Below, in pieces: positions 16,327-46,807 of a stretch of 64,000 bases of DNA; the stretch's first letter is position 1; each line of letters opens with the position of its first letter. The translations under genes and the position numbers were made by a program. The stretch spans positions 1 through 64,000 of the forward strand of contig DASZFO010000245.1 of assembly GCA_035939775.1 (NCBI GenBank), read 5' to 3'. The DNA comes from Pirellulales bacterium (lineage in GTDB: Bacteria; Planctomycetota; Planctomycetia; Pirellulales; DATAWG01). The notes beneath the pieces are model-generated. The model made no database searches, was not told the origin of the DNA, and saw nothing but the letters and a program-made list of their open reading frames with translations.

Positions 16327-16818
16327 GCATTCCTCCAGCAAATATAGCAGGCACACTCCGTGCGCCGTCCGCTTAATGTAGCAGGCACACTCCGTGTGCC
16401 GTCCGCTTCGTTCTGGTAACGGCACGCGGAGCGTGCCTACTACGTTGAGCGCCCGCGGCCGAGTCTACTTTACCGATCTTCCGTTCGCTACGCCAGGATG
16501 GGCGCGCCGTCGAGCGGCGTCCGGGGATCCGCAAGTGTTCCAGTTATGGCAATCGACCGTCGCTCGCGCGACGACCTCCTTCAACATCTTGGTGGGATTC
16601 GAGAGATTTTGTGAGCGCCGTCCTTCGTTTGCTCTCGTTCTTGACGGGTCATCCCCAAAATGGGGTAATCGGGAGGTGAGCATCGCAAGCCGTGTTTGTG
16701 CTTCACTCGTTCCAGAAGAAGTCCAAGAAGTGCATCGCAACGCCAAAAGCGGAATTCGACCTAGAAACTTGGAAATTGTTAGGGGTATGTTACGCTGAAC
16801 GCTCACGCGGAGGATTTC
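16327..16818. other. Divergent intergenic region, 490 nt
   Basis: It lies between vgrG (-) and the receiver gene (+). The left part holds the repeats at 16345-16444. From 16445 to 16800 I see no gene, no clear promoter and no strong hairpin; a purine-rich ribosome site (CGGAGG) precedes ATG 16819. Confidence 0.6.
16345..16444. repeat. GGCACACTCCGTGTGCC repeats, two direct and one inverted
   Basis: Direct copies at 16345-16374 and 16379-16408 each read TAGCAGGCACACTCCGTG then CGCCGTCCGCTT or TGCCGTCCGCTT. An inverted related copy lies at 16416-16444. They sit just upstream of the vgrG ribosome site. The same core occurs at 3573-3589. Confidence 0.85.
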
Positions 16819-24162: not shown

Positions 24163-27100
24163 TCAGTTGTGCCAGTGTCGGCCGATCGCGTCGAGCAGAT
24201 CGTCGGACAATAGCGAGAAATCGGCGTCGGCCGCCGGAGGCCGAGGGTCCAGGGCAAAAGCCGCCCACTCCAAAACGTCGGCATCGGCGAACGCCGCCCC
24301 GACGGCGTCGCAATGAAGTAACTCACTATTCCCGTTTTTGGTGATGGCAGTTTGCCGTTCGAGAAATGTCGCTGCGTCGGAAGTCGAAGCGACGCCAGTG
24401 GCCGTAAGCGATGATAGTCGTTCGCCCTCATTGCTTGCGGAATAGGCGAGGCCTAATGCGCCGAAAGTCTCCCTCGACGACTGCAAAGCAATCAGACCCG
24501 CCGAATCCGAGGAATTCGAGTTGACCGCCAATGTTGATCCAAATGAATCACGAGAGTTCGCCGCGACGGCAACAGAAATCGGCGGCTCCGACGAAGCGGT
24601 GGTCGCGGTCAACGGAGAGGCAGTTGCGACCGCCGACGCGCTACCCGCGGTCGGCGGGGCGGGCTGCGGCGAATTGGCCATTGCGTCGACCGTCATGCGG
24701 GTGTCGCTAGCCCCCACGGAGTTCAGCGGATTCCCGTTGGCATCGCTTGCGGCGATCGTAACCGTCGCCGGGCTGCCCGCCGTGCCACCGATCACTAAGG
24801 CACTCTGAATGATGTGGCCGGCCGTCAAGCTGTTGCCGGCGTTGACCGTCAAATTGCCCGTGCCCTCGATGCCGCCGCTGATCGTGAGTGTGCCGGCGCC
24901 GGTCAGAGTCAGCGAGCTGTTGTCATTCCAAGCCGTGGCCGACGAAGGGTCGATCGTGACGTTCTGCGTGGCATCGACCAAGGCGATCAAGGGATCGGTT
25001 ACATCCGGCAACGAAGAGAGCAGACTGATCGTCTGCGATCCGGCGGGCAATGCAAACTGAATCGTGTGCGTCTGGCCGGGAGCGCCGGCGGCGTCTAGCA
25101 ATGCCTGCCGGAGCGAGCCAGGGCCGCTGTCCGAAGTGCTTGTTACAGGGATGGGCGCATTGACGTACGTGGTCGCCTGCGGCGCAGTGGGGACGCTTTG
25201 CTGATTGCCCACATTGTCGGTCGCCACGCAATAAAACGCATAGGTATGAAAGTCTTGGCCCGTGAACGCGGCCGAGGTCGCCGTAGTGTTTGATTGGAAC
25301 AACATATACGCGCCGCCACTGTCGGACACATAGACGTTATACGAGCCGATGCCGGAGCCCCCAGCGTCGTCCTGCCCGCTCCAGTTCACTGTGAACGTAG
25401 TCGATGCTTCGGTCGGCGGGAGCGCGGCGACGCTGCTCGTCGGCGGGCCGGCGTCGATCGTGACGAGCGCCTCTTTGGCCGGATCGGTTCCCTGCGTGGG
25501 ATCGGTCTCGCTGACCTGATCGGTGGCGATGATCGGCTGCTCGTCGAAGCTGACATCGGCGACGTTGCGAATCTGCGTGCCGGTCGGCAAGCCGGCGATG
25601 GGCGAGATGGTGTAGCTGATGTGCCCCATCCCGCGCCCCGTGCCATCTTCCGGCGGGAGGAAACCAGTGAGCACGTCCGGGGGCAGGCTGGTCACTGGAT
25701 CGATGCTGAAAAACTGGGCGGTGATGAGACCCGTGGCGAGGTCGATGCCGATCTGCACTTCGACGTTGAACGATTCGCCGTTGAACGTCATCGGCACGGT
25801 CGTCTGAAAGTGCTGCGAGTTGGCCGGGACCGTGATCTCAGTATCGCCCCAGCCAACCTCATTCAACCGGAAGCTGCTCCAATCGAGGTTGGAACTCAGT
25901 TGATCGGTGATCACGACCTGCTGCGCCGGCGCCGTGGCCGAAGGATCGTTCTCGAAATCGACGCGATACGGAAGCGCCGTGCCCGCGGCGACAAAGCCGC
26001 TCGGGCCGAAGCCGGGGCCGATCTTGTCGTTCGGATCGACTGCAGAGGCGATCCGCGAGAGGCCGAATATCGTGCCCTCGAGGTTCAAGCCATTCAACGC
26101 AAGGAATTTCAGTTCGAGTATTCGCTGCTCCGCCTTAAGGCGGCGCAAATCCTCCGCAAGTTGATCGTGAAGGTCATGGGGTCCCGGAAGCGCCCAGTCG
26201 ATCACTTTCATTACCGCGAAGTTGGCAGGTAGTCCAAAGAGCACCCGCGAGATGTCAAAGGGAAGAAAATCTACACTCTTTGGGTGCTCCATGTCGTCCA
26301 GTTCTGCGGTGTCATGGGTGATAGATTTGTCAAAGGCATCGATCTGAGCTTTCAATGCAACTTGCTCATTTTCGTCTGCGGATAGCGTTGGGTCGTATCC
26401 ATAGGAATAAACCGGAGGCCAGTTGTAGTTATAGACTGTAGAATGGTAATAGGTATCGGCATCGCCAAGTTCAAGGTCATTGTTAGTGAACCAGATTATC
26501 TGACCCGATGGATCGACGAATTGCACGGGCTGGTTGGCAGCATAACGGTAGAAGTTCGTATCGCCACCTCCTAATTGAAGCGGATCGCTGCTTGTGAATC
26601 GACCGACCGCGGTGCTGTAGAACCGAGCCCTCATGAAGCTCAATCCGCCCCCCTCGGCTTGCACGCCGAATGCGCCGACGAACTGGAATGAATTAGCGGT
26701 GGCGGCGGTGACGCTTTGACTTTCGCCGAACGGCAAGTACCGATAACGGTTCACGTAGCTCCCTGTGGCGTCGGTCAAGCCCGCCGTCGAGCCGGTCGCG
26801 TCGAAATCGTAGAAGTACCTAGCGCCGGCAGCGGTGAGCTGACTGACCAAAGTTAAACCGTGATCAAAATGCGCGACGAGGCTTCCCGCGCCATCATACG
26901 TGCCGACGACATTGCCCAAGCCAAGCGGATCGTTCACGAATTGGGTCGTTTGCCCACCGGCGATCGTCGAGACGCGCTGCCCCAGAGCGTTGTAGACATA
27001 TTGCGTGGCGCCTTGGGCATTGCTGACGCCGGTCAGCTCGTCGAGCTGGTCGTAGGTGTACGTGTTCGTTCCGTCGAAAATGAGATTCCCGTCGGCGTCG

Positions 27101-30100
27101 TACTGCTGCGTCGTGCCGCCGATGCTCGTGTATTGATTGAGGGCATTCGTTACGTAAGCGGTTGTGACGCCGTTGATAACCGTGCTGGTGCGATTACCGT
27201 TCGGGTCGTAGTTATAGGCGAGGTCCTGGTTCGGCAGGCTTGGATTGGTCGACGTGAACACCGCGCGGACGAGTTGGCCGTCGGCGTCATAGCTATAGGT
27301 CCATGAGCCGTCGAGAGTGGCCATGCTCGTCTCTTGCCCTCGCAAGTCGTAGGTGTAGTCGAATCGGCTGTTGGCCGCGCCGCCGGGGGCATGGTTCACA
27401 AGGTGCATGAGATTGCCGGCCGCGTCGTACTCGTAAGTCGTAAATGTGCCGTTGGCGTTGTCCTGCTCTTGAAGTCGCCGGGCGGCGTCGTAGTGATATG
27501 TGACGACCGGTTGATTACTGCCATCAGTGAGCTGCGACAAATCGCCGGCGGGAGTGTAGGCGTAGTTGACCGTGTATCCGCTCTGATCGACCATGCTCGT
27601 CCGCCGCCCGCCCGCGTCGTAGGTGAACGTCAACGACTTGCCGCCGGGATAGCTGACGCTCGTCATCCGGTCGGCTGAATCGTAAGTGAAAGTCGTTATT
27701 CCCGTTGCGTCACTGGCGGTCAGCAAATTATTGCGGGCATCGTATGTGTAGTCGTAATGGCTGCCGTCGGCGAACGTCTCGTGGGCGGTTTGGCCCGAGG
27801 CGTTGTAGGTCATCGTGGCCGGCTGCCCATTGCGATTGACGTACGAAATCGGATCGCCCAGCGGATCGTAGGTGTAGGCCGCTCCGCTGCCGTCGGCGTA
27901 GGTAGCGGTTGTGAGATTGCCGTTGGCGTCGTATGCGTAATGAGTCACGTTGCCGTTTGGATCGGTGAACGAAGCCAGCCGGCTCATCGCCCCGTAAGTG
28001 AATTGCGTGACTGCGTGGAGCGGATCGGTGGCGGTGAGAAGATTGCCGGCCGCGTCGTAGGTGTAGGTGCTCGTATCGCCGGCGGCGTCGGTCAGCGAAA
28101 GCAAGTTCCCTTGCGAGTCGAAGGTGCTGTAGACAGGATTTCCGAGCCCATCAACGCCTTTCACGGGAAAGCCGGCCGCATCGTAGAACGATTGCGTGGC
28201 GTCGCCGAGGGCGTTGGTGGCGGTGACTTCGCCGAGACCGTTGTAGGTAAAGGCGATGGCCCCCGCGCCGCCGTCGGCGGAAGTGCCGGCGACGCGGCCC
28301 TGCGCATCGTAGGAGTAAAACGTATGCGTGCCATCAGGATGTGTGATCGACGTCAGCGCGTTAGTCGTCGCGTCGTAAGCGTATGAGATCGTTCCATCCG
28401 AACCAGTGACGCTCAACAGGAATTGATTCGATGGATCGTACGAGTAGGTCGTCACGCGGCCGGCCGAGTCGGTCAAGCTCGCCAGTCGACCGGCGGCGTT
28501 ATAGGCCAGCGTCAGCGATTGCCCGGACGACGCCGTAATCGCCGTGAGCTGGTTCGTGCCGTTGTAAGTGAGTGTCAGCCGATTGCCATTCGTGTCTTGC
28601 TCGTAGGCCAGCAAGCCGGAAGCGCCGAACACCGCGAATGTGCCGTCCCTTTGCGTCAGCGTATAGGTTCCGCCGCCCGTGGCGGTGAGCGTTTCGCCTT
28701 GGAGAGGCGAGACGAATCCACCGTACTTGGAGGAGTCTGGCTGAAACGTCGCCGTGAGTTGGCCGCCGAACCCGACGCCGATCGACCCATCGCTATTCTT
28801 TGACAGTGCGAGTTGCCAGGACGTCTGCCAACCTAATCCGAGTATGCCGGCGGTGTATCGGCTGCCGATCGCCTGCTGGTAATCGCGTTCGAAGCCGAGC
28901 GACGCCGCGTTTGGCAACGGCAGGATGGCGTCGCTCGCACTCGCCAGCGTTTGGGCGGGACCAAGTTCCGCATCGGCTTGAGCGATCATAAAGCCGAAAA
29001 GCTTGTCAACGTCGTTGACGTTTTGTCCCAAGCCGCCCAAATAGGCGGCGCTCGTGTCAAGTGCGCCGACAAACTGGCCGGACGTGCTACCCAACTGAGC
29101 CACGAGCGTGCTGAACACGGAATTCCAGGCGCCGTTCGGGATGTCGGGGGGCTGCAGGCTGGATTTGAGGCTATTCCAGTCGATCGTGTCTGTGCCGGAC
29201 GTGTCAACGGCGCCCAGACTCATCGGAATCGTCGTGTGCGTCAAATCCCAGGGCTGCTCGAGGCCGCCCCAATAAACTGGCACGGTGAACGACTCGCCCG
29301 GCTCGAGAATGCCGGGCACCGCGCCGTTGGCGAGCATCATGAGCGAGGTGCTGTAGCCGTCGGGCACCCTCGTCGTCACGAGTCCCGGTGAGATTCTTGA
29401 GGGGTCGAGCGTCATGAGCGGCACCTGCACCGGATCGGTCGATTGCAGCACGAGCAGCGGAGCGGGCATGGCGACCGTGCCGTCGTTGGCGTAGGTGACG
29501 TAGAGCGTGGAAGCGATATGTCGTCCCAAGGCGGCCGGCACTTGAAGGCCGGTCTGAAGGTGCGCCGCCCCGCCCGCGCTGATCGTCAGGGCGCCTGGCA
29601 GAGTGCTGCTGCTCGCGCCTTGATTGACGACAACCGAATAGACACCGGCCGGCAAGCCCTGCGGGAACGTTGCCACGAGCTGCGTGAAGGAGACATCGTT
29701 GACGCTGGTCGCGGGGATTTGTGTGTTGCCCGGTCCCACGAGCGACACCGTCGTGCCGGGCTCAAAACCGTCGCCGGTCAGTCGCAGCGTCATCGGGGCC
29801 GCATTCCCGATCGCCTTGGGCAGCACGTCGTTCAATTGCAACTGCACGCCGCCGGCCGACAGGCTGAAGGTCGAGGCGACCGGGACATAGTTCCCGTAGA
29901 CGAGCACGTACCACGTGCCGATCGCCGCATTGGGGATCGTGATGGTTTGGTTGGCGGAGTTAGCCGTCGTGTAGCGGTAATCGAACGTCTCGCGCGTCGG
30001 CGGGGAACCGAACCGCAGATAAAGTTCATTCGAGTCGTTGCTCGCCGGGTCGGTGAGGCTGGTGATCAGCGTTTGCACCGCCGGCACGGCAATCGTGAAC

Positions 30101-33100
30101 AACTCCGCCTGGCCGGAGCCGGCCAGCGTGCCGTTGACCAAGCCGCCAAGCGGCAGGTCGGTCTGCGTCGTCGGGTTGACCGCAAACGCGTAGTGCCCGG
30201 TCGCGCCGTTCACGCCGGACGCCGAGAGGGTATACGTTCCCGAAGAAGGTAGGTTAATTAGCGGTGAGTCGCCCGAGGCGTTGCTGAAGGCCGCGAAATT
30301 GTTCGGTCCGGTCAGCGAATAGACGATTCCGGTTGATGTGCTATTGATGAGGTGGAATTGCACCTGCTCGCCGGCCAGGGCCGAGAACGTCCATTGCTGA
30401 ATGTCAAACGGCGTGCGGATGCTGCCGTTGGTGGGTTGCCCCAACAACAGCGGCTGAATCTGGGGAGTCACGTCCCACACGGCTACTGCGTAGTTGCCTG
30501 TGGCGGTGTTGGTGTGCCCCGTGGCGGCACTGATCTTGATGGAGTAGACGCCATCGGTTGGCAGGGTAATGTTCGGCAGCGAGACCGCGGCGCCGAATGC
30601 GGCGCTATTTCCGCTGGCCAGGACCGAGTTATTCGGCGCAATGAGCTGGATGCCGGCAAAAATAAGATTGGGCGTGATCGGCGCCGGCACGGTGCCCGTC
30701 CCTGGATTGACGTAGGCAGTAACCGCCTCGCCAGAGCGGCCGAAGAACGTCCAGATGTCCTGGTCGCCCGCCGGGCTGATCGTACCGGGCACCGCCGAAT
30801 TGATATCGATCTGGCCGCCATCGGGGAATTGCGTGATGGTTCCATTGACGACGCTGGCTCCGTTATTGATCTGCACCGCGCGGGCGTAGACGTGAAGCCC
30901 GTTGAGGTCGAGCGTGCCAGCACTCACGAGCAGCGAGTTCGCATAGAGGGCGTTGGGGCCTCCCGGGGCATTGGCGAATTGATCGACCAGCCTTACATCG
31001 CCCGCAACGTTGATGGTTCCGTAGACAAAGTTGTTCTTGAAGCCGGCCGCGGTGTTGCCCAGGTCCTGGCTCATGACCTCGAGCAATAGTGGATTCCCCG
31101 GTGAGAACCCACCATTCAGCGTGGTGACGCCTTGGGGGTTCGAGGAAGCGAATGCGGTGCTGTTGCCCAAGATGCTCCCACCCACCGAGAATGAGCCGGA
31201 AAGGTCCGTCGAAAGTGTGCCGGCGCCGTCGATGCCAATCGTGCCAAGCGTACTGAACGTCCCGCCGTTCGCCTGCATCGTTCCCTGGTTGCTGAACGTC
31301 CCACCGCCGGTGCTGATCGAAATCGTGCCGGCGGGGTCCGCGGCGACGATCCGGCCCTCGTTGATGATAGCGCCGCTGGCAAAGCTGTTGCGGAACCCAC
31401 CGGTCTTGCCCTCAATCGTGATGTGGGGGCCGATAGTGAGGGTGCCGCTGGCGCCCGAGAGGTTCGAATTGTTGTCGATCACATTTCCGCCGCCTTGGTT
31501 GAACCCGAATACGATTGTCCCGTTTCCGATCAGACTTCCGGCGGCGACGTTGAATCCTCCGAAGTACAGAGTGGCGGAGTTATTGGTTCCCGAGCCCATT
31601 GTGATCGTGCCGTTGAGAACCAGGCCGCCCGTAAAAGTGGCCTGCGCGGACTGCTGGGTGGCATCGACATTCCCGTTGACGGTGACGCCGGCAAGCGTTC
31701 CGCCGAAGTTGCTCAGGATGAGCTGCGATCCGCCGCTGGTGTTGACCGCGCCGCCGTTGATCGTTCCGCCCACCAGCGTCCACGATCCATTGGCCGCGTC
31801 AAGATTCAAACCGCCGTAGAGCGTCCCCGTGAGGTTCACGGTGCCGCCGGTGCGGACGAAATTGCCCAACGTGGCGCGGGTAAAACTGCCGGCCAGATTG
31901 AGCGTGGAATTGGTGGCGACGATCGTACCGTTGTTGCTCCAATTCGAGCTGAGCGACAACGTCGAGTTCGTGACCGTGATCGTCTTGCCGGCGCTGTTGA
32001 TCAGGCCGACGCCACTGATTGTCCCGCCGTTGATCACTTGGATCGAGCCTTGGTTAACCACCGGCCCAAAGGTCCCCAATTGAATCGTTCCGCCGGCGAC
32101 ATCGGCGCTGATCGTCCCTTGCACGACGATGGTGTTGCCCGTCGTGCCGGCTTGCTGCTGGAGCGAGCCGGACTGTCCGCGAATCGTGATATTCGGCCCG
32201 ATGGTCAATGTCTGAGACCCCGTGCCGACCCAACCGTTGAAGAGAGAATTGCCGAACACTCTCGTTCCCCCGAAAACCACGGTTCCCGTTCCGACCAGGC
32301 TGCCCGGCGCGTTGAGATTGTCGCCAAAAATGACGGTGCCAAACGCGGAACTGGCCGTGTTGCCGAGGTACATCGTGCCGTTGAGCGTCAGTCCGCCGTC
32401 CACATTGACGATCGGGGAGGCTTGGAGCGAGGCATTCAATCCGGCGTCGAGATCCATGTCGCCGTTGAAGGTGACGCCGTTCTTTAAGATTCCGCCAAAT
32501 TGCGTAAACGCCAGCTCCGCCCCCCCGCTCTCGCTGACGGCGCCGCCCAAGACAGTCCCCGCGTGCAAAAACCAAGAACCGGTGCTGGCATCCAATGTCA
32601 AGCCGCCGCTGAGCGTTCCGGAAAGGTCCACGATCGATCCGGAACTGTTGAAGGTTCCGAGGCCGGCTTGCGTGAATGTGCCGTGGAGGTCCACCGTCGA
32701 GTTCGTCGCGGTGATCGTGCTGTTGTTCGCCAGGGAATCGAACAACTGCAGCGCCGCGCCGTTGACCGAGACCGTGCCCGTCGATTGCGTCAGGTCGCCC
32801 AGCGCGAGAGTTGCGCCGTTGATGGCCTGAAGGGTCCCTTTATTGATCAGCGAATTCTGTGTAACGCCGAGGCTTCCCGACCCGCCGACGCTGATGGAGC
32901 TGTTCGCCCCGCTGGCGATTACCGACGTATCAACTTGAATGGTGCTTCGCGAATAGAAGTTGGCGATTGAGCCAACGCCCCCTTGGATTGCTCCCGAGAT
33001 TTCGATCTTGCTGCCGCCCAAATAGGTTGTGGCGCCCATGTCACTGTATGAAAGCACTGCGGGGGGATCATTCGGGCCAGGCTTTGGGATGAAGTTCAAA

Positions 33101-34602
33101 TTGTTATTGATGATTCCGTTGCCCGTCGAGGAGCCAAAGATGATTTGACCCCCTACGGTCAGTACGGTGTCGCTGCTGATGTGGTAACCGCCCACGCCCG
33201 TATTGTCATAGGGCGACTTGCTTCCAAAATCCTCCGCACCCGTGCCGAGAATGACGACCGCGCTCGTCGTGCCGGTGGCGTTGCCCAGCCGCAGATTGCC
33301 GGTGACCGTCAGGCTGTCTATAACGGTGATCGAGCCGTTTTGGGCCAGCGTGAGGTTGAAATCGCCGCCGATCGTTTCGCGGGCGAGGAGCCCGCCCGTC
33401 GGCGCGAATCCCGCCGTCGCGCCGCCGCTTTGAGTCAGCGTTCCATCACTGAGCGAGCTGCCGGCGAGGAAATTCCACGACCCGGTGCCAGCGTCGAGCG
33501 TGAGGTTGCCATTGACGTTGCCGGTGACGTTGACCGTGCCCCCACTGCGGTTGAATGTGCCCAAGTTCGCCTGCGAGAGACTCCCCGTCAGGTTCACGGT
33601 CGAATTGGTGACGGTGATCGTTCCCAAGTTGCTCAAGCTGCCGCCGAGCGTCAGCGTCGATCCGGTGGCGGTTACCGTTGCCCCCGACTGATTCACGAGA
33701 TCGGCGATCGTGAGACTGGCGCCGTTGACCACTTCGATCGATCCCTGATTCGTCACATTTCCGTTGGTGCTGCCGAGCAAAATCGTGCCGGCGGACGCGC
33801 CGGCGTCGATCGCGCCCTGGTTGACGATGCTGCCGGTCGTAAAGTCGTTGATCATCGATCCGCTCCCGCCTTGGATCGTGATATTCGGGCCGAAGGTCAG
33901 CGTGCCGGAGGCGCCGCCGAGATTCGAATTGTTGTTGATCGAGTCGCTGGAGGATGCGCCGAACACCACAGTGCCGGTTCCCGTGAGTCCGCCGGCGGCA
34001 TGAGTGCTGTCGCCAAACAGAATCTGCCCGGACGTGCTGCCGCCGGCATTGCCCAGCGATAGCGTGCCGTTGAGAGTAAGCCCGTCGTACACCGTCGCAT
34101 TTCCCGATTGCGTGGCGGCGTCGATGACTCCGTTCACTGTGACGCCATCGAGCGTGCCGCCGGAAGTGGAGAGCGAGATGACGGCGCCCCCTGTCTCGCT
34201 GAATGTCCCGCCCAGGATCGTTCCGCCGGCCAGAGTCAGGTTCGCCCCGATTTGGGCGGTGGTTCCAACTTGCAAAGTTCCGCCGGTGAGCTTCACCAGA
34301 TCGCTGGTGACGAGGCGATTGATGGATTGAATTCCCGACGAAATCTGAATCGTCGGGTTGCCCGAGATGCTGATGGTGACGTCGTCCGCGGGACCGGGCA
34401 GTGCGTTGGTCGACCAGTTCGCGGGGTTCGTCCAGCTTGTGCCGTCACCGGCGCCTGTCCAACTGACGGCCGTAAGAAGACAACGACCCTCGAGCCGTTC
34501 AAGTCCGAGGTGGACGAAATTCGGGCCTCGGCGTCCGCGGCTCCGTGCTTGCCTTCGGGGCATTGCATCGCGACGGCGATTCGGAGAACGATGTTTTCCC
34601 AT
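24163..34602 (-). CDS. Giant RHS/YD-repeat surface protein with LEPR-like N-terminus
   Basis: 3479 aa. The N-terminus is basic with LERLEGRCLLTA (about residues 35-46), the planctomycete LEPR-type motif. Residues ~50-1200 are beta-helix-like with a long unit repeated several times (GTVVFG, NNNSNLGGASGTLTFGPNIT, GTITVTNSTVNLTGSLSQANL). About 1270-1480 has pre-peptidase-like beta domains (GDQDIWTFFGRSGEAVTAYV). About 1590-1690 has an IPT-like domain. About 1900-2690 is an RHS shell with around twenty YD repeats and the core end FYSTAVGRFTSSDPLQLG ... FVDPSG. A helical tip (2690-2850), DUF11-like beta domains (DPNDKIGPGFGPSGFVA), a fibronectin-like domain and the shared VIGGTAGSP module (~3267) follow, and the end is a Ser/Ala-rich tail. 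GAGG precedes ATG 34602 by 7 nt. No toxin motif was recognised. Confidence 0.9.
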   Translation of the reverse strand: MGKHRSPNRRRDAMPRRQARSRGRRGPNFVHLGLERLEGRCLLTAVSWTGAGDGTSWTNPANWSTNALPGPADDVTISISGNPTIQISSGIQSINRLVTSDLVKLTGGTLQVGTTAQIGANLTLAGGTILGGTFSETGGAVISLSTSGGTLDGVTVNGVIDAATQSGNATVYDGLTLNGTLSLGNAGGSTSGQILFGDSTHAAGGLTGTGTVVFGASSSDSINNNSNLGGASGTLTFGPNITIQGGSGSMINDFTTGSIVNQGAIDAGASAGTILLGSTNGNVTNQGSIEVVNGASLTIADLVNQSGATVTATGSTLTLGGSLSNLGTITVTNSTVNLTGSLSQANLGTFNRSGGTVNVTGNVNGNLTLDAGTGSWNFLAGSSLSDGTLTQSGGATAGFAPTGGLLARETIGGDFNLTLAQNGSITVIDSLTVTGNLRLGNATGTTSAVVILGTGAEDFGSKSPYDNTGVGGYHISSDTVLTVGGQIIFGSSTGNGIINNNLNFIPKPGPNDPPAVLSYSDMGATTYLGGSKIEISGAIQGGVGSIANFYSRSTIQVDTSVIASGANSSISVGGSGSLGVTQNSLINKGTLQAINGATLALGDLTQSTGTVSVNGAALQLFDSLANNSTITATNSTVDLHGTFTQAGLGTFNSSGSIVDLSGTLSGGLTLDASTGSWFLHAGTVLGGAVSESGGAELAFTQFGGILKNGVTFNGDMDLDAGLNASLQASPIVNVDGGLTLNGTMYLGNTASSAFGTVIFGDNLNAPGSLVGTGTVVFGGTRVFGNSLFNGWVGTGSQTLTIGPNITIRGQSGSLQQQAGTTGNTIVVQGTISADVAGGTIQLGTFGPVVNQGSIQVINGGTISGVGLINSAGKTITVTNSTLSLSSNWSNNGTIVATNSTLNLAGSFTRATLGNFVRTGGTVNLTGTLYGGLNLDAANGSWTLVGGTINGGAVNTSGGSQLILSNFGGTLAGVTVNGNVDATQQSAQATFTGGLVLNGTITMGSGTNNSATLYFGGFNVAAGSLIGNGTIVFGFNQGGGNVIDNNSNLSGASGTLTIGPHITIEGKTGGFRNSFASGAIINEGRIVAADPAGTISISTGGGTFSNQGTMQANGGTFSTLGTIGIDGAGTLSTDLSGSFSVGGSILGNSTAFASSNPQGVTTLNGGFSPGNPLLLEVMSQDLGNTAAGFKNNFVYGTINVAGDVRLVDQFANAPGGPNALYANSLLVSAGTLDLNGLHVYARAVQINNGASVVNGTITQFPDGGQIDINSAVPGTISPAGDQDIWTFFGRSGEAVTAYVNPGTGTVPAPITPNLIFAGIQLIAPNNSVLASGNSAAFGAAVSLPNITLPTDGVYSIKISAATGHTNTATGNYAVAVWDVTPQIQPLLLGQPTNGSIRTPFDIQQWTFSALAGEQVQFHLINSTSTGIVYSLTGPNNFAAFSNASGDSPLINLPSSGTYTLSASGVNGATGHYAFAVNPTTQTDLPLGGLVNGTLAGSGQAELFTIAVPAVQTLITSLTDPASNDSNELYLRFGSPPTRETFDYRYTTANSANQTITIPNAAIGTWYVLVYGNYVPVASTFSLSAGGVQLQLNDVLPKAIGNAAPMTLRLTGDGFEPGTTVSLVGPGNTQIPATSVNDVSFTQLVATFPQGLPAGVYSVVVNQGASSSTLPGALTISAGGAAHLQTGLQVPAALGRHIASTLYVTYANDGTVAMPAPLLVLQSTDPVQVPLMTLDPSRISPGLVTTRVPDGYSTSLMMLANGAVPGILEPGESFTVPVYWGGLEQPWDLTHTTIPMSLGAVDTSGTDTIDWNSLKSSLQPPDIPNGAWNSVFSTLVAQLGSTSGQFVGALDTSAAYLGGLGQNVNDVDKLFGFMIAQADAELGPAQTLASASDAILPLPNAASLGFERDYQQAIGSRYTAGILGLGWQTSWQLALSKNSDGSIGVGFGGQLTATFQPDSSKYGGFVSPLQGETLTATGGGTYTLTQRDGTFAVFGASGLLAYEQDTNGNRLTLTYNGTNQLTAITASSGQSLTLAYNAAGRLASLTDSAGRVTTYSYDPSNQFLLSVTGSDGTISYAYDATTNALTSITHPDGTHTFYSYDAQGRVAGTSADGGAGAIAFTYNGLGEVTATNALGDATQSFYDAAGFPVKGVDGLGNPVYSTFDSQGNLLSLTDAAGDTSTYTYDAAGNLLTATDPLHAVTQFTYGAMSRLASFTDPNGNVTHYAYDANGNLTTATYADGSGAAYTYDPLGDPISYVNRNGQPATMTYNASGQTAHETFADGSHYDYTYDARNNLLTASDATGITTFTYDSADRMTSVSYPGGKSLTFTYDAGGRRTSMVDQSGYTVNYAYTPAGDLSQLTDGSNQPVVTYHYDAARRLQEQDNANGTFTTYEYDAAGNLMHLVNHAPGGAANSRFDYTYDLRGQETSMATLDGSWTYSYDADGQLVRAVFTSTNPSLPNQDLAYNYDPNGNRTSTVINGVTTAYVTNALNQYTSIGGTTQQYDADGNLIFDGTNTYTYDQLDELTGVSNAQGATQYVYNALGQRVSTIAGGQTTQFVNDPLGLGNVVGTYDGAGSLVAHFDHGLTLVSQLTAAGARYFYDFDATGSTAGLTDATGSYVNRYRYLPFGESQSVTAATANSFQFVGAFGVQAEGGGLSFMRARFYSTAVGRFTSSDPLQLGGGDTNFYRYAANQPVQFVDPSGQIIWFTNNDLELGDADTYYHSTVYNYNWPPVYSYGYDPTLSADENEQVALKAQIDAFDKSITHDTAELDDMEHPKSVDFLPFDISRVLFGLPANFAVMKVIDWALPGPHDLHDQLAEDLRRLKAEQRILELKFLALNGLNLEGTIFGLSRIASAVDPNDKIGPGFGPSGFVAAGTALPYRVDFENDPSATAPAQQVVITDQLSSNLDWSSFRLNEVGWGDTEITVPANSQHFQTTVPMTFNGESFNVEVQIGIDLATGLITAQFFSIDPVTSLPPDVLTGFLPPEDGTGRGMGHISYTISPIAGLPTGTQIRNVADVSFDEQPIIATDQVSETDPTQGTDPAKEALVTIDAGPPTSSVAALPPTEASTTFTVNWSGQDDAGGSGIGSYNVYVSDSGGAYMLFQSNTTATSAAFTGQDFHTYAFYCVATDNVGNQQSVPTAPQATTYVNAPIPVTSTSDSGPGSLRQALLDAAGAPGQTHTIQFALPAGSQTISLLSSLPDVTDPLIALVDATQNVTIDPSSATAWNDNSSLTLTGAGTLTISGGIEGTGNLTVNAGNSLTAGHIIQSALVIGGTAGSPATVTIAASDANGNPLNSVGASDTRMTVDAMANSPQPAPPTAGSASAVATASPLTATTASSEPPISVAVAANSRDSFGSTLAVNSNSSDSAGLIALQSSRETFGALGLAYSASNEGERLSSLTATGVASTSDAATFLERQTAITKNGNSELLHCDAVGAAFADADVLEWAAFALDPRPPAADADFSLLSDDLLDAIGRHWHN

Positions 34603-34719: not shown

Positions 34720-37434
34720 TCACTTTCTCTCAGCGCCGGGACTTGTGTCGGAGCGAGGCTTGTCGGGCTTGAATCGTTCCAGTGCCGCCTTCCGAGCTTC
34801 CAGTTCTTTCCGCCACTTCGCGGCGTCGTCCGGCTTGCCTGTGACCTCATAGAACAGCACTATCCGTTCTATGGCCTCGGCCAAGTGAGGCTTGCCGCTG
34901 GCGGGCATCGTGGCTTCACATTCTTTCATTTCGTCGAGAGCTTGGATGAGCAGAGGCCCTGCCTTGTCCAACTTTTGTTGGCCCAGCAGGGCGCTGCCCA
35001 GTAGTGACTTCGCGTCGAATGTCGTCCACGCGTCGGGCATCTTCTGTTTTCGAACGGCCAGGCATTCACGCAGAATGGACTCGGCCAGGGTGTACCTCTT
35101 TTGCAACAGGTACCTTCGGCCCAACTCAGCGAGCGCCCCGGCCGGTTCCAAGGTGTCCGGTCCGTACTGATCGGGCATCGACGTCGCTGACTCGAGTAAG
35201 AGCTGCCTGGCCTTGGCTGGTTGGTCGGTCGCCTCATAAGCCGCTGCGAGTTCATACGTGCCTGTGACCGTCAAAGGGTGATCCGGACCGCATCTGGCCT
35301 TGCAGGCCGGCAGGGATTCCTCCAGAATCGCCATTACCTGCCCTGGCTGCCCGACGGCCAAGTAAATCTCGGCGAGGTTGTTCGTCGTGTTGAGAGTCTG
35401 AGGATGATCGCGCCCAAGCGTGTCCTTCATCAGTGCGAGAGACTGCTTGAACAGCTCCATGGCTTCCGGAAGCCGCCCGGCAACTTGATATGCCAGTGCG
35501 AGGTTGTTCATGGTCTGGAACGTGACGTCATCGCTCTTTCCGAGTTTGGTTTTGCAGAGTTCCAGCGATGGTTCGAGGAGGCGTATCGCTTCGTCCGGGC
35601 GTGCGGCCATCCGATAGGCGTCACCGAGGATCGAGGCTGTCAGCAGTGTGTCGCGGTGGCTGGCGCCAAGCTTGGCCCTCTGCCGCCTCAGCGCTTCCTC
35701 GGCTAATGCGATCGCCTCGTCCAGCCTTCCAGTGCCCCGGAGTGCCCAGGCGAGTTCCCTCATCGCCATCAGTGTCTTTGGGTGGTCCGGGCCGAGCGTT
35801 GCCTGCCGCAACGCTCGCGCCTTCTCGAACATCTCCCCCGCTCGTGCATATAGCCGCAAGCCCTGGTACGTGAAGCCCAGCGTGGCCAGGAGGTCCGCCT
35901 TGAGGTTGGAAGAGTCCGTGAAGTTCGCATCCAACTCGACTGCGGCATGGTCCAAAAGATCGGCCAATCGGATAACCCGACCATCTTCACGCGGATCTGC
36001 TGACCGAAAAAGCTTCACGAGAGAATTGGTCACCGCTTCCGCCTGCCGCCGCGCCTCCTCTGACTCCTTAAGGGCATCTTCCATGAGGGCCTTTGCTTGT
36101 TTGGCCTCGGACAGCGCGCTACCCATTTTTTCCTCCGCCCAAGTCGCCCGCACCGCCTGCCAAGTGCTGACGGCCGCACCCACCATGAGCAGCAAGCCGG
36201 TCACCGCGGCAGTCGCCAAGGCCGCGCGATGCTTGTGAGCAAACTTTCGCAGCCGATAACGGGCGCTGGGCGGCGCTGCCTGCACCGGCTCATCGCTCAG
36301 GTAGCGCTCCACGTCGGCGCCCAGGGCGCTGGCTGTTTCGTAGCGGCGGGCGCGGTCTTTTTCCAGGCACTTCATCACAATCCAATCCAGTTCGCCGCGG
36401 AATAGCCGGCTCAATTGGCGCGGGTCGCTTTTGCGCTGCGTGCCGACAGTGCTGGCCGCTTCGAGGGCCAGAGTCGTCAGCCGCGTGCTGGGCCGTGACG
36501 GTTCCTCCTCGCGGATGATCCGCCGCAGCTCGTCGAACGAGGCGCTCTTCAGCCGCTGGCTGTCGAACGGCGTCGTTCCCGTGAGTAGTTCGTAGAGCAG
36601 CACGCCCGCCGAGAATATGTCGCTGCGGGTATCGACGTCCAACCCACTCATCTCCGCCTGCTCGGGGCTCATGTAGAGCGGGGTGCCGATCATTTGAGTG
36701 AAACCGGTGAATAGAGTTTTGTCGGTCAGCTCTTGCCCGGTGGCCTTGGCCACGCCAAAGTCGATGACCTTGATTACGGGGCGTCCATCGTGCAGCGTGA
36801 CAAGTACGTTCGTCGGCTTGATATCGCGGTGGATGATGCCCTTCTGATGGGCGTGCTGCACGGCCTGGCAGACCGCTACGAACAGCTCCAGCCGGTCGCG
36901 AGTTGCGAGCTTTTTCTCGTCGCAGTACTCGGTCACCGGTACTCCGCGGACCAGTTCCATCACGAAGTAGGGCTGGCCGCTCGCGGTGGTTCCCGCGTCC
37001 AACACTTTGGCAATATTCGGATGATCCATCAGGGCCAGGGCCTGCCGCTCGGCCTCGAAACGGGCGATGACCTGCCTGGTATCCATGCCCGGCTTGATAA
37101 TCTTCAGGGCCACCTTGCGCTGAATCGGCTTGGACTGCTCGGCCGTGAAAACGACGCCGAAGCCCCCTTCGCCGATTTGCTCTAGTAGCTTGTAGGGGCC
37201 GATGACGGTGCCCGGCATCTCAGCGAGAGGCTCGTCCGGGGTGGGATCGCTCGTCGCCGAGCCCCCGAGAAACTTGCCGGCGTATTGGTGGGCCCGCAAT
37301 AGCCGCTCGATACGGCCGCGCAATGCAGCGTCGTTCTGGCACACCACGTCAAGGTAGCGCGCAACTTCTTCGGGCGACTCTTTCTCAATCGCCTCCAGGA
37401 AGATCAGTTTTGCATCGGGTACTACGTGGCTCAT
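34720..37434 (-). CDS. Ser/Thr protein kinase, transmembrane, with TPR sensor domain (module A)
   Basis: 904 aa from ATG 37434. The kinase domain (about residues 78-350) is complete: glycine loop [17 protein letters not shown] with Lys, [25 protein letters not shown]. One TM helix lies near residue 410 ([20 protein letters not shown]), followed by coiled coil ([25 protein letters not shown]). The outer part is a series of ~42-residue TPR units of kinesin-light-chain type ([37 protein letters not shown]). It lies 101 nt after an ECF sigma gene in the same direction. In planctomycetes such kinases are paired with ECF sigma factors and may control them by phosphorylation. Confidence 0.95.
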
Positions 37435-37535
37435 GACGGACCCCGAGTAAATCGGCTCCACTTACCAATGCCCCGTTTGGGGTGAAAGTGCGCCAATTGA
37501 ACGCGATGATTGTAAAAACCTCCCGCAGACAGCTT

Positions 37536-38093
37536 TCAGTCTTCGCTCAGGCGAGCGGCCAGCCATGCCCGGGCATATGCCCAATGTCGATCGGCGGTGC
37601 GGCGTGGAATTCGTAGAACTTCCGCCGCTTCGCGCTGCGAAAGACCGGCGAAGAACCGAAGCTTTACTAGATTGGCGCAGAGAGCATCCTCAACCGCGAG
37701 CGCCTCCAGTGCGTCGTCGAGAGCGAGCAGATCTTCGTCAGGCGTATCGAGCGCCACTTCGATCTGGTCAAGACTGATTCTCCGGCCACCGCCACCACGT
37801 TTCAGCCGATTGCGATCGCGGGTTCGATTCAGCAGTACCCTACGCATGGCCTCGGCCGCTGCGGCAAAGAAATGACCGCGGCTGTCCCATTGCGGTGAGG
37901 CCTCGGGACCGACCAGACGCAAGTAGGCCTCGTGTACAAGAGCCGTGGCTTGTAGAGTTTGGCCCGGCTTTTCCTGTGCCAGCCTTTGGGCCGCCAGCTT
38001 GCGTAATTCGTCGTAGACGAGCGGCAAGAGCTGCTCGGCGGCGTGTTGATCGCCTTGCTCAACGGCGGATAGGATGCGGGTAACTTCGCTCAT
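37536..38093 (-). CDS. ECF RNA polymerase sigma factor (module A)
   Basis: 185 aa from ATG 38093. Sigma region 2: LLPLVYDELRKLAAQRLAQEKPGQTLQATALVHEAYLRLV and RGHFFAAAAEAMRRVLLNRTRDRNRLKRGGGG. Region 4: LVKLRFFAGLSQREAAEVLRIPRRTADRHWAYARAWLAARL, a helix-turn-helix. It belongs to the Sigma70_ECF/TIGR02999-like type common in planctomycetes and acidobacteria. It precedes kinase A; no anti-sigma factor is adjacent. Its start region is nearly identical at DNA level to module B (46808-47365), and both proteins are 185 aa. Confidence 0.95.
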   Translation of the reverse strand: MSEVTRILSAVEQGDQHAAEQLLPLVYDELRKLAAQRLAQEKPGQTLQATALVHEAYLRLVGPEASPQWDSRGHFFAAAAEAMRRVLLNRTRDRNRLKRGGGGRRISLDQIEVALDTPDEDLLALDDALEALAVEDALCANLVKLRFFAGLSQREAAEVLRIPRRTADRHWAYARAWLAARLSED

Positions 38094-38586
38094 CGGCACC
38101 ACCACAACTGAGACCACTTTGGAAGTGCTTTGAGTCTAGCCGCTCGCTTGGCCAACCGCCACAAATCAGCCCGCACAGGCGCCGCAAGCATATGTACGCC
38201 GACGCCTCCAAATCACGATTCAAGGGACCCGGTCGCCTGAGAACTCGCGGAGTGGTTGGCAATGGGTGCCCCGTCCAGCCGTGCGGGTCGAATGCACGGC
38301 GGTCGGATCGACCGACGTAGTAAAGTGTGTTCATCGGCGGACCGAAATCAGTTTTGCCGTCCGCCACCGTCGTTTTATCGTGGTAGGGGTCCAAGGTCAT
38401 TCGGCCTTTCAGGGTGAGTCCCGATGGTGACAGGTGGACGACGGCCGTTAGAACTTTTTCTGGCCGGCGTCCAGCGACTCGACGCGACAATCTGTTCCAA
38501 GATGGGACAGGCGACGACAGAGTGAGACGGCACCAGATCGTCGCCTGGGCAATCGGTGCTAGGGGGCACGTCGGATCGGCGGCGAG
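38094..38586. other. Upstream region of sigma/kinase module A, conserved with module B
   Basis: About 490 nt between the sigma gene and the sulfotransferase stop. The part 38110-38314 aligns with 47381-47585 upstream of module B with few gaps (for example GAGACC near the start, CAACCGCCAC, GGTTGGCAATGG or GGTTCGGCAATGG). The remainder (38320-38586) has no recognisable gene. Confidence 0.75.
38300..38314. promoter_or_regulatory. Inverted repeat CGGTCGGATCGACCG upstream of sigma module A
   Basis: A perfect 6-bp inverted repeat with 3-nt centre, 207 nt before the sigma start. The identical 15-mer lies 206 nt before the module B sigma start. A candidate operator or autoregulatory element. Confidence 0.5.
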
Positions 38587-39860: not shown

Positions 39861-42815
39861 TCATTCTGAACGACTTGTCCGCCGTCGCGTGATCGCCAGT
39901 CCGCCGAGCGCCAGCCCGCCGAGGGCGAGCAGAAATAAGCTTGCGGGCTCCGGAACCGCAGCAAGGCCAGCGGTTGCACTGAAACTGCCCTGCGCGGAGA
40001 TATTGAAACCAAATCCCTTCGTCGTCGAATCGGCGATCAGTTCGGCGGGACTGACAACCGCTCCAAACGGATGCTCGCTCGCTGTGAACAACACGGCCTG
40101 AAATAGGCCACCGGCCAACGGATTCCCCGAGGCGTCACTGGCGTCGATCGTCACCAGCGCTGGGCTGCCAGCGGCACCGCCGATGATCAAGGCGCTTTGG
40201 ATGATATGGTCGGCCGTGAGGTCGCTGCCGGCATTGACTTGCGTGTTGCCCGCTCCGCCGATGCCGCCGACGACTTGGTTCGTGCCGGAGATGACGACAC
40301 CCGGGGCCGTGCTGTTGTTCACAACATGCACGCGATTGCCGCCTGCTATGCCGAGCGCCGAATCCGAGCCGGCCAGTTCGAGCGTCGCGCCGCTGGAGAC
40401 GACGGCGGAAACGCCGGTGCCGATCGTCGGCGAGCCGCTGGCGAGTGTGAAGCGGAGCGTGCCGCCGTTGACCGCGAGCGCCGAACCGTTGCCCAGTGTC
40501 ACGTGGTCTTGGACGATCACGGGAATCGGCCCCAGCCCCCGACTGGGATCACCAGCGTAGTCTCGCACCACCAGCGACGCGCCGGGCGCAAGGTCGAGGC
40601 CGGCAATGTGGCCGTCGGAATGAATCAGATTGTTTGTAACTGCGCTATCCAAGAATGAGTCACTTAAGTCAGATCCCCGCGCGTCGGCGCCGCTCAGGTT
40701 CGCTCCGGCCACAGTGCCCGAGTAAGGTTGGAAGTACGTGTTGGTGAGATTGGCCTGGCTGAGATCGGCGTTGCTCAAGTTAGCGAACGACAGGTTGGCA
40801 TTGGTGAGATTCTGTCCGGCGAAATTCCAAGCGGCAAGGATATTGTTCGACAGGCGAATTCCCGTCAGATCGTGGGCTTGGTAGCTGGCCGTCGAATAGA
40901 GCTGGGCGGCGGTGAAGCCGGTAGCCCCGAAATTCGCCCCCCGCACCTGGGTGCCGCTCAGGTTCGTTCCATCAAGTGTGCAATTAACAAAGCCGGCGTT
41001 GGCGAGGTTTTGGCCGGCGAAATTCGCACCGGAAAAATCAATGCCGTTCACGGCGAAATCGGCGTTGAATCGAATTGCGGTCAGATCATGCGATTGATAG
41101 CTGGCCGTGGAATACAGTTGCGCGACCGTAAAGCCGGTGGTGTTGCCGAACGATGCTCCCCGCACGTCGGCGCCGGTGAAGTTCGCGCCGGTCAGATTAG
41201 CGGCGCGGACGGAGGGGTTATCAGGAGGCGCGGTGAAATTCGCGCCACTGAGGTTGGACCCGTGGAAATCCGCGTTGCTCAATATGCCTGACCAGAAAGA
41301 CGCGTTGGTGAGGTTCTGGCCAGCAAAGTTCCAGCCGGAAAGATTGTGGTATCCCAACCCGATTCCGGCCAGATCATGGTTTTGATAGCTCGCCGTAGAG
41401 TAAAGCTGCGCCGCCGTAACTACGTTGCTACCGTTGATATCTGTACGGAAATCCGCCCCCAGCACGTCCGCCCCGGTGAGGTTCGCCCCAGTGAGGGTAC
41501 CGTAACTGAAATTCGAGTTTGTGAGGTTGGTTTGCCGGAGATTGGTGTTTTGCAGCGTGGCGTGGGAGAAGGACGCGCCGGTGAGGTTCTGGCCGGCGAA
41601 ATTCCAGCCGGCAAGGTTGTTGTATGAGAGATCGGTTCCGGTCAGGTCGTGGGCCGCATAGCTGGCCGTTGAATAGAGCTGGGCGGAGGTGAAGCCGCTC
41701 GATGTGGTGTTGGCGAAATATGCCCCGCGAACCTCGCTGCCCGCCAGGTTCGCCCCCGTCAGCGTCGCACCATTGAAGATTGCGCCGGCGAGGTTCGCCC
41801 CGCTGAAATTGCCATTGTTCAGCGCCGCCTGAATGAAAGAGGCGCTTGTGAGGTTCTGGCCGGCGAAGTACCCGCCGGCAAGGTTGTTTCCATCCAGACG
41901 GATTCCGGTGAGATCGTGGTTTTGGTAGCTGGCCGTGGAGTAAATTTGGGCGGGCGTCAAGCCAGTGGTGTCGGTGAGCCATGCCCCTCGTATGTTGGCC
42001 CCCGTCAAATTCGCGCCGGTCAGGTTGGCTAGATAGAAGGAGACGCCGGTAAGGTTGGTGTTGCTTAGATTGGTATTGCTCAGCGTGGCCTCATCAAAGG
42101 ACGAGCTGGTGAAGGTGGCCCCAGTGAGGTCGGCGTCGGACAGGATGGAGTGATTGAAGTAAGTGGCTGTGAGATTTGCGCCAGTCAGCTTCGCTCCGGT
42201 GAGCGTAGCATACTCGAAGCCCGCGCTGGTCAGGTTCTGCCCGGCGAAGTTCCAGCCGGAGAGGTTGAGATTATCGCCGCCGAGTTGGATGCCGGTTAAA
42301 TCGTGATTTTGATAGCTCGCCGTCGAGTAAAGCTGTGCAGACGTGAAGCCGGTCACGCGGTTAAGAAATGCGCCGCGTACTTGGGCACCAGTCAGGTCTG
42401 CGCCGGTAAGCGTGGCCTGATAAAAGCTCGCATTGGCGAGGTTCGCCTGGCTTAGGTTCGCTCCGGTCAGATTGGCGACAACATCGAAATATGGATCGAA
42501 GCTTGCGCTGGTGAGATTGGCGTGGCTCAAATCCGCGTTCGTAAAATTGGCCCCTTGGGCCAGCGCGCCTGATAGGTCGGAGCCGATCAGGTACGCCATC
42601 GTAAGGTTGCGGGTCGACAAATACGCGCCCGACACAGCATTGGCGCCCGCGCCGTCGGGGCAGAGGGTTGTGCCCTGTTGCTTGCCTTGTGTGGGATCCG
42701 CGGGATTGATGTACTGCCACTGAAAAATGTCGGCCCGGGCGACGTGGGCCGGGGCGAACAGTGCGAGCAGCAAGGCCAGCAACGCTGTCACAAGGAGCGT
42801 CCAGTGTTTCGTCAT
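39861..42815 (-). CDS. Pentapeptide-repeat PEP-CTERM surface protein
   Basis: 984 aa. Signal peptide LLVTALLALLLALFAPAHVARA. Residues ~50-740 are pentapeptide repeats A(D/N)Lxx (LSQANLANASFYQATLTGADL) arranged as six super-units, each opened by a (F/V/L)TxAQ(L/I)YSTASY block and containing NxSGWNFAGQNLTxASF. Pentapeptide repeats fold as a quadrilateral beta-helix. Then comes the module shared with the 20405-24115 gene (GTNQVVGGIGGAGNTQ, IIGGAAGSPALVTIDASD), and a PEP-CTERM anchor (VPEPASLFLLALGGLALGGL). Probably exported and surface-displayed. Function unknown. Confidence 0.92.
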   Translation of the reverse strand: MTKHWTLLVTALLALLLALFAPAHVARADIFQWQYINPADPTQGKQQGTTLCPDGAGANAVSGAYLSTRNLTMAYLIGSDLSGALAQGANFTNADLSHANLTSASFDPYFDVVANLTGANLSQANLANASFYQATLTGADLTGAQVRGAFLNRVTGFTSAQLYSTASYQNHDLTGIQLGGDNLNLSGWNFAGQNLTSAGFEYATLTGAKLTGANLTATYFNHSILSDADLTGATFTSSSFDEATLSNTNLSNTNLTGVSFYLANLTGANLTGANIRGAWLTDTTGLTPAQIYSTASYQNHDLTGIRLDGNNLAGGYFAGQNLTSASFIQAALNNGNFSGANLAGAIFNGATLTGANLAGSEVRGAYFANTTSSGFTSAQLYSTASYAAHDLTGTDLSYNNLAGWNFAGQNLTGASFSHATLQNTNLRQTNLTNSNFSYGTLTGANLTGADVLGADFRTDINGSNVVTAAQLYSTASYQNHDLAGIGLGYHNLSGWNFAGQNLTNASFWSGILSNADFHGSNLSGANFTAPPDNPSVRAANLTGANFTGADVRGASFGNTTGFTVAQLYSTASYQSHDLTAIRFNADFAVNGIDFSGANFAGQNLANAGFVNCTLDGTNLSGTQVRGANFGATGFTAAQLYSTASYQAHDLTGIRLSNNILAAWNFAGQNLTNANLSFANLSNADLSQANLTNTYFQPYSGTVAGANLSGADARGSDLSDSFLDSAVTNNLIHSDGHIAGLDLAPGASLVVRDYAGDPSRGLGPIPVIVQDHVTLGNGSALAVNGGTLRFTLASGSPTIGTGVSAVVSSGATLELAGSDSALGIAGGNRVHVVNNSTAPGVVISGTNQVVGGIGGAGNTQVNAGSDLTADHIIQSALIIGGAAGSPALVTIDASDASGNPLAGGLFQAVLFTASEHPFGAVVSPAELIADSTTKGFGFNISAQGSFSATAGLAAVPEPASLFLLALGGLALGGLAITRRRTSRSE

Positions 42816-43768: not shown

Positions 43769-46702
<2,934 letters not shown>

Positions 46703-46807
46703 GGCAACACGCAATTCCAGGTTGGTCCGTCACCTTACAGTGCGGATTGGACTTCCGATTCGTCCGGAAGAAAAGCAACGAGATTAAGATTTCATCCCGC
46801 GGGCCGA

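What the first reader, a model, noticed from the sequence alone, without database searches (positions are those of the whole stretch)
24163..34602. Giant RHS protein whose shell is followed by ~800 residues of adhesin-type domains
RHS proteins usually end in a short variable toxin after DPxG. Here FVDPSG is followed by a helical segment (~2690-2850) and then DUF11-like, fibronectin-like and shared VIGGTAGSP domains, while the N-terminal third is a beta-helix-like array. An RHS cage embedded mid-chain in a cell-surface fibre is unusual. The helical segment could be cargo.
Basis: partly seen in the sequence, partly recalled or inferred. Interest (0 to 1): 0.6.

Follow-up and report, generated by a model that had tools for sequence, protein, structure and literature searches.

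The report
Planctomycete RHS protein, swappable middle segment
A giant planctomycete surface protein carries an RHS shell of the kind that normally hides a toxin at the protein's end, but here the highly variable segment behind the shell sits in the middle of the chain with conserved surface-stalk domains after it, and the same layout recurs with a different middle segment in dozens of relatives.

Summary
It is not a one-off. At least 54 distinct Planctomycetota RHS proteins, plus one Verrucomicrobiia relative lacking a recognisable core, have YD shell, DPxG core, a 92-305 aa segment, then a DUF7619 domain. The segment is a hypervariable cassette. Shells (300/300 pairs) and DUF7619 domains (595/595) are all alike, but only 4 of 1431 segment pairs are. 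Its GC at four-fold codon sites is about 20 points below the shell's in 35/35 proteins, a mark of exchanged RHS tips. In two proteins 84-93% identical around it, about 107 residues after DPSGL are unrelated. The aspartyl-autoprotease Arg/Asp/Asp triad (R2660, D2673, D2697) is conserved with the spacing of solved teneurin-like proteins. No toxin match and no immunity gene were found, and some cassettes are low-complexity, so a toxin is not shown. Best reading: a surface-displayed RHS cage whose cargo is internal and stays attached to a stalk. A fast-evolving spacer is the main rival. New variant of a known kind.

The parts
24163..34602 (-). giant RHS surface protein, 3479 aa
34474..34503 (-). 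LERLEGRCLL (residues 34-43), resembles the planctomycete LEPR-XLL N-terminal motif
   Evidence: by eye, no NCBIfam hit
30823..34467 (-). N-terminal repetitive beta-rich region, residues 46-1260 (beta-helix-like by eye)
28948..30162 (-). pre-shell region, residues 1481-1885, conserved in the family; resembles PPC and TIG/IPT domains by eye
26758..28920 (-). YD/RHS shell, residues 1895-2615
   Evidence: (pLDDT about 50-88, mostly above 70)
26503..26757 (-). RHS-associated core, residues 2616-2700, ending FVDPSG
26623..26625 (-). R2660, autoprotease arginine, 35/35 in family
   Evidence: spacing as BiTLP R2103 (PMC13018210)
26584..26586 (-). D2673, first autoprotease aspartate, 34/35 in family
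26512..26514 (-). D2697, second autoprotease aspartate (DPSG), 35/35 in family; cleavage predicted just after residues 2700-2701
26038..26502 (-). hypervariable cassette, residues 2701-2855 (proposed cargo)
25513..26037 (-). DUF7619 (DUF11-related Ig-like) domain, residues 2856-3030, with predicted isopeptide triad K2860, D2900, N3013
   Evidence: PMC12617251
25153..25452 (-). fibronectin-like domain, residues 3051-3150, conserved in the family
   Evidence: by eye Fn3, no Pfam hit
24166..25140 (-). C-terminal surface module, residues 3155-3479, 86 matches in own genome
20405..24115 (-). next gene, 48 nt downstream: PATR/PEP-CTERM exported protein, not an immunity gene

Best explanation
The protein is an exported, surface-displayed RHS cage with an internal, exchangeable cargo. 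The YD repeats form the shell and the DPSG core plugs it. The 155-residue segment after the plug is the cargo, held wholly or mostly in the shell cavity. The chain then leaves the shell, as in mosquito SGS1 and teneurins, and continues into a DUF7619 Ig-like domain, a Fn3-like domain and a C-terminal surface module. The core keeps its aspartyl-autoprotease residues, so the chain is probably cut next to DPSG; that would free the cargo's front end while its back end stays attached to the stalk. The cassette has been replaced repeatedly while both flanks were kept, as expected for a segment under diversifying selection, such as a toxin-like or membrane-active payload used against neighbours or predators. 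Shown: layout, family-wide conservation, hypervariability, composition shift, triad residues. Inferred: enclosure, cleavage, exit route, biological role.
For: Shell and core are homologous to solved RHS cages and teneurin-like proteins. The triad R2660/D2673/D2697 has the 13- and 24-residue spacing of BiTLP R2103/D2116/D2140 and is conserved in 35/35, 34/35 and 35/35 proteins (51, 49 and 51 of 54 in the larger set). The segment is hypervariable between conserved flanks: 2/595 segment pairs alike against 300/300 shell and 595/595 DUF7619 pairs, 4/1431 in the larger set. L059 and L061 share 73% of the shell and 72% of DUF7619 but nothing in the segment. L076 and L079 are 84-93% identical around it, yet the first ~107 residues are unrelated. 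GC at four-fold sites: segment 0.61, shell 0.82 (lower in 35/35), DUF7619 0.82 (31/35), also lower than the C-terminal region after Fn3 (29/34). Lengths are 92-305 with median about 150, and 53/54 are at most 230, matching the ~15 kDa variable ends of teneurin-like proteins and the ~230 aa held in SGS1 (PMC13018210, PMC9935623). Strongly hydrophobic 19-mers occur in 12/35 segments against 1.1% of same-length windows elsewhere in the same proteins.
Against: No Pfam toxin hit in the 19 cassettes scanned, including the window's, and no PDB or plasmid relative of the window's segment. No immunity-type gene follows this gene, and no consistent one follows 23 relatives with enough downstream sequence. 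Several cassettes are Gly- or Pro-rich low complexity (L051, L068, L050, L007). The hydrophobic excess is not significant against pre-DUF7619 segments of RHS-less proteins (19/54 vs 3/21, p=0.09). AF2 gives no confidence for core, cassette or closure.
Confidence: 0.5

Rival explanations
1. The segment is a fast-evolving, functionally loose spacer that carries the chain from the RHS plug out to the stalk domains. The RHS shell is just a structural module of a surface fibre.
For: Several cassettes are low complexity, Gly/Pro/Ser-rich. L051/L052 evolve gradually, 83% in the segment against 91-96% in the flanks. No toxin match and no immunity gene. Neutral drift in L076/L079 is only weakly rejected, P 0.01-0.10 at the four-fold identity of the flanks.
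Against: Most cassettes are complex sequences (entropy about 3.6-4.1 bits), many with hydrophobic helices. The composition shift is stronger than in other poorly conserved parts of the same proteins. The autoprotease triad is near-invariant, which a bare spacer does not need. The length ceiling near 230 aa fits a cavity.
Confidence: 0.33
2. An ancestral RHS toxin protein was fused in front of surface-stalk domains and the old toxin tip is now a decaying relic.
For: No recognisable toxin or immunity gene. Two of the organism's three other RHS cores end conventionally, with free C-terminal tips after DPSG.
Against: The segment stays in frame at 92-305 aa in 54 proteins across several families and the triad is retained; a relic should shrink or vanish.
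Confidence: 0.12
3. Assembly or gene-fusion artefact.
For: Many of the genomes are fragmented assemblies with many contigs.
Against: One open frame without stops, the same order of domains in dozens of independent genomes including single-contig ones such as G031.
Confidence: 0.01

Closest known systems
Rhs polymorphic toxins (for example P. laumondii Rhs1, P. protegens RhsA, Tse5, Tse15)
   Same: YD shell, RHS core, aspartyl-autoprotease residues, hypervariable segment of different GC starting right after DPxG (PMC8636562, PMC2935791)
   Different: the variable segment is internal and followed by more than 600 further residues including conserved domains; no PAAR or toxin domain, no immunity gene
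Bacterial teneurin-like proteins (BiTLP, PDB 9ifo/9pt5)
   Same: surface-type RHS protein with the same triad spacing; variable end of about 15 kDa (PMC13018210)
   Different: TLPs have an NHL propeller, end in the variable domain and have a downstream immunity gene; none of these is seen here
Mosquito salivary SGS1 (PDB 8fjp)
   Same: a ~230 aa helical moiety lies in the shell and the chain exits through a mid-shell opening to further sequence; all three autoprotease residues kept (PMC9935623); fold hit
   Different: eukaryotic, two propellers, no DUF7619 or Fn3 stalk described; the SGS1 moiety is not described as hypervariable
DUF7619 / DUF11 (CLIPPER) isopeptide Ig-like stalk domains
   Same: Pfam match; K2860/D2900/N3013 fit the Lys/Asp/Asn triad given for DUF7619 (PMC12617251)
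   Different: placed directly behind an RHS cassette; Lys is present in only 14/35 relatives

Membership tests
Rhs/YD-repeat polymorphic toxin | YD/RHS repeats | tested here: met
   PF05593 E 3e-62, 16 stretches
Rhs/YD-repeat polymorphic toxin | RHS-associated core ending in DPxG | tested here: met
   TIGR03696 63 bits, cut-off 32.5
Rhs/YD-repeat polymorphic toxin | aspartyl-autoprotease Arg/Asp/Asp residues | tested here: met
   R2660/D2673/D2697, near-invariant; activity itself not testable here
Rhs/YD-repeat polymorphic toxin | closed beta-cocoon enclosing the variable segment | tested here: inconclusive
   shell mostly pLDDT 70-88, core and segment low; Foldseek probability 1.00 to RHS cages, TM up to 0.44
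Rhs/YD-repeat polymorphic toxin | hypervariable segment directly after DPxG | tested here: met
   4/1431 segment pairs alike
Rhs/YD-repeat polymorphic toxin | variable segment is the C-terminal end | tested here: not met
   followed by DUF7619 and further conserved domains
Rhs/YD-repeat polymorphic toxin | recognisable toxin domain | tested here: not met
   no toxin family in Pfam or PDB
Rhs/YD-repeat polymorphic toxin | downstream immunity gene | tested here: not met
   next gene is a PATR/PEP-CTERM protein; none consistent in relatives
Bacterial teneurin-like protein | NHL propeller before the shell | tested here: not met
   no NHL match in Pfam scan
SGS1-like topology | chain leaves the shell through a side opening | not testable with these tools
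   model too uncertain
DUF7619 isopeptide domain | Lys/Asp/Asn triad | tested here: met
   all 14 relatives with the Lys also have Asp and Asn, against 6 of 21 without it

The most novel reading that the evidence does not exclude
A distinct class of RHS proteins in which a diversifying cargo is loaded into the cage from the middle of the chain, freed at its front by autoproteolysis but kept tethered at its back to a surface stalk: a displayed, retained payload rather than a released toxin tip, with exchange needing two recombination joints instead of one.
Probability: 0.3. Interest if true: 0.75.

Novelty: new variant of a known kind. Interest (0 to 1): 0.55.

Why it matters
RHS tips are thought to vary by displacement of the gene's 3' end. 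A cassette that varies between two conserved flanks needs another route of exchange and another idea of release. It also offers a bacterial counterpart to SGS1 and teneurins, whose chains leave the shell and continue outside, and points to an apparently undescribed, widespread class of planctomycete surface proteins that may mediate conflict.

Tried and rejected
Single-sequence AF2 of residues 1900-2924 failed (pLDDT 40). A six-row alignment rescued the YD shell only. A viral-contig scan gave no relatives. Segments of L058 and L126 look by eye like H...C papain/LRAT-type domains, but Pfam gave only LRAT E 0.095 for L058 and nothing for L126, with no plasmid match, and the L058 segment has no match in 398 genomes of the class outside its own, so this is not claimed. 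Cassette hydrophobicity was dropped as proof of enclosure because the RHS-less control was not significantly different. Neutral drift as the cause of the L076/L079 difference could not be firmly excluded. T6SS delivery was considered because a VgrG lies 8 kb away; rejected for lack of a PAAR or T6SS N-terminus. Literature searches for a described planctomycete RHS protein of this layout found none in the open-access library; subscription journals are not covered.

Full report
OBSERVATION. The ORF at 24163-34602 on the minus strand encodes 3479 residues without interruption. Pfam finds 16 RHS-repeat stretches, DUF7619 from residue 2856 and a sub-threshold DUF6531 at 1895-1940. NCBIfam finds the RHS-associated core at 2622-2701. 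FVDPSG ends at 2700 and VIGGTAGSP is at 3270. The N-terminal third and the fibronectin-like domain have no Pfam hit and stay judgements by eye. The C-terminal 325 residues form a module with 86 matches in the organism's own genome, which supports a generic surface role.

FAMILY. In 398 genomes of the class, 61 have a DUF7619-region match, and outside the window's own protein the matches begin at or just before the start of DUF7619, leaving the segment after the core unmatched. After fetching full loci, 35 proteins (the window's included) show an RHS core followed by DUF7619, nearly all with the Fn3-like domain next. Two family-level searches raised the set to 54 distinct core-segment-DUF7619 proteins. 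The relatives are Planctomycetota, with one Verrucomicrobiia protein whose core is not recognisable. RHS cores are common in the class (256 of 398 genomes), so this is a subset. Two of the organism's three other RHS cores end conventionally, with free C-terminal tips.

THE CASSETTE. Between DPxG and DPN lies a segment of 92-305 residues; 53 of 54 are at most 230. In the 35-protein set, 2 of 595 segment pairs are alike at E<=1e-3, against 300 of 300 shell pairs (25 proteins with a complete shell) and 595 of 595 DUF7619 pairs. In the 54-protein set it is 4 of 1431. L059 and L061, from different families, share 73% of the shell and 72% of DUF7619 but nothing in the segment. L076 and L079, from one genus, are 84-93% identical on both sides, but the first ~107 residues after DPSGL are unrelated while the last ~60 are alike. 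A simulation of neutral drift at the flanks' four-fold identity (about 0.53) reaches the observed lack of similarity in 1-10% of runs, so replacement is favoured but not proved. L051/L052 show a segment that only drifts.

COMPOSITION. GC at four-fold sites is 0.61 in the segment, 0.82 in the shell (lower in 35 of 35), 0.82 in DUF7619 (31 of 35) and 0.775 in the region after Fn3 (29 of 34). The last is a control for poorly conserved sequence. In the window itself the values for segment, shell and DUF7619 are 0.556, 0.818 and 0.914. Different GC and codon bias are reported for RHS tips as a sign of exchange (PMC8636562; PMC2935791).

AUTOPROTEASE. The paper on teneurin-like proteins names R2103, D2116 and D2140 of BiTLP (PMC13018210). 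R2660, D2673 and D2697 have the same spacing (13 and 24), and the phmmer alignment ends at the DPxG glycine in both (residue 2700 here, 2143 in 9ifo/9pt5). They are conserved in 35/35, 34/35 and 35/35 proteins. The residue after DPxG is Leu in 24 of 35 but Gln in the window. Activity is inferred, not shown.

STRUCTURE. Single-sequence AF2 failed. With six aligned sequences the YD shell was predicted mostly at pLDDT 70-88; core and segment were not resolved. Foldseek ranks Salmonella bongori Rhs, RhsA, Tse15 and other RHS cages first (probability 1.00, TM up to 0.44), then teneurins, TcB-TcC and SGS1. Closure and enclosure are therefore not demonstrated. In SGS1 a ~230-residue helical moiety lies inside the shell and the chain leaves through a mid-shell opening (PMC9935623), which makes the proposed topology physically possible.

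STALK. In DUF7619 of L7WFS8 a Lys/Asp/Asn isopeptide is predicted, and the Lys is the fifth residue of the domain (PMC12617251). This corresponds to K of DPNDK here: K2860, D2900, N3013. All 14 family members with that Lys have both partners; of the 21 without it only 6 do. So the domain right behind the cassette is probably covalently locked in this protein, but not in every relative.

AGAINST A TOXIN. No toxin family in Pfam, no PDB or plasmid relative of the window's segment. The next gene starts 48 nt downstream and is an exported PATR/PEP-CTERM protein. No consistent small gene follows 23 relatives with enough downstream sequence. Teneurin-like proteins, in contrast, nearly always have an immunity gene (PMC13018210). 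Several cassettes are low complexity. Hydrophobic stretches are far commoner than elsewhere in the same proteins (12/35 vs 1.1%), but not significantly more than in pre-DUF7619 segments of RHS-less proteins (19/54 vs 3/21, p=0.09).

VERDICT. A member of the RHS/YD-shell superfamily by shell, core and triad residues, but it fails the defining polymorphic-toxin feature of terminal cargo, and toxin and immunity features are absent. It is best filed as a new variant: RHS surface proteins with an internal hypervariable cassette. It works most likely like an RHS cage with a tethered cargo; a fast-evolving spacer remains a serious rival.

Noticed in passing
14179-16425 (-) and 13228-14175 (-): A VgrG-like spike protein (Phage_GPD, gp5 OB and trimerisation domains) next to an FHA-DUF6931 protein, about 8 kb from the RHS gene; the RHS protein has no PAAR, so a link is not shown.
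   Followed up: partly
34720-38117 (-) and 43769-47365 (-): Two separate pairs of Ser/Thr kinase-TPR protein and ECF sigma factor on the same strand, one directly upstream of the RHS gene.
   Followed up: no
39861-42815 (-): Large pentapeptide-repeat protein with a PEP-CTERM-like C-terminus just under Pfam's cut-off.
   Followed up: no
24166-25140 (-): C-terminal module with 86 matches across the genome, some 60% identical or more to the last residues; looks like a shared surface or sorting module.
   Followed up: partly
L058 (segment of G167) and L126: Segments with a His...Asn-Cys pattern resembling papain/LRAT-type enzyme domains by eye; Pfam support only E 0.095 for L058 and none for L126.
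   Followed up: partly
L076 and L079, last ~60 residues of the segment: The rear part of the cassette is conserved (ending VLYYL...KQGE.DLETSEQRTP) while the front is replaced, as if only the front is exchanged.
   Followed up: no
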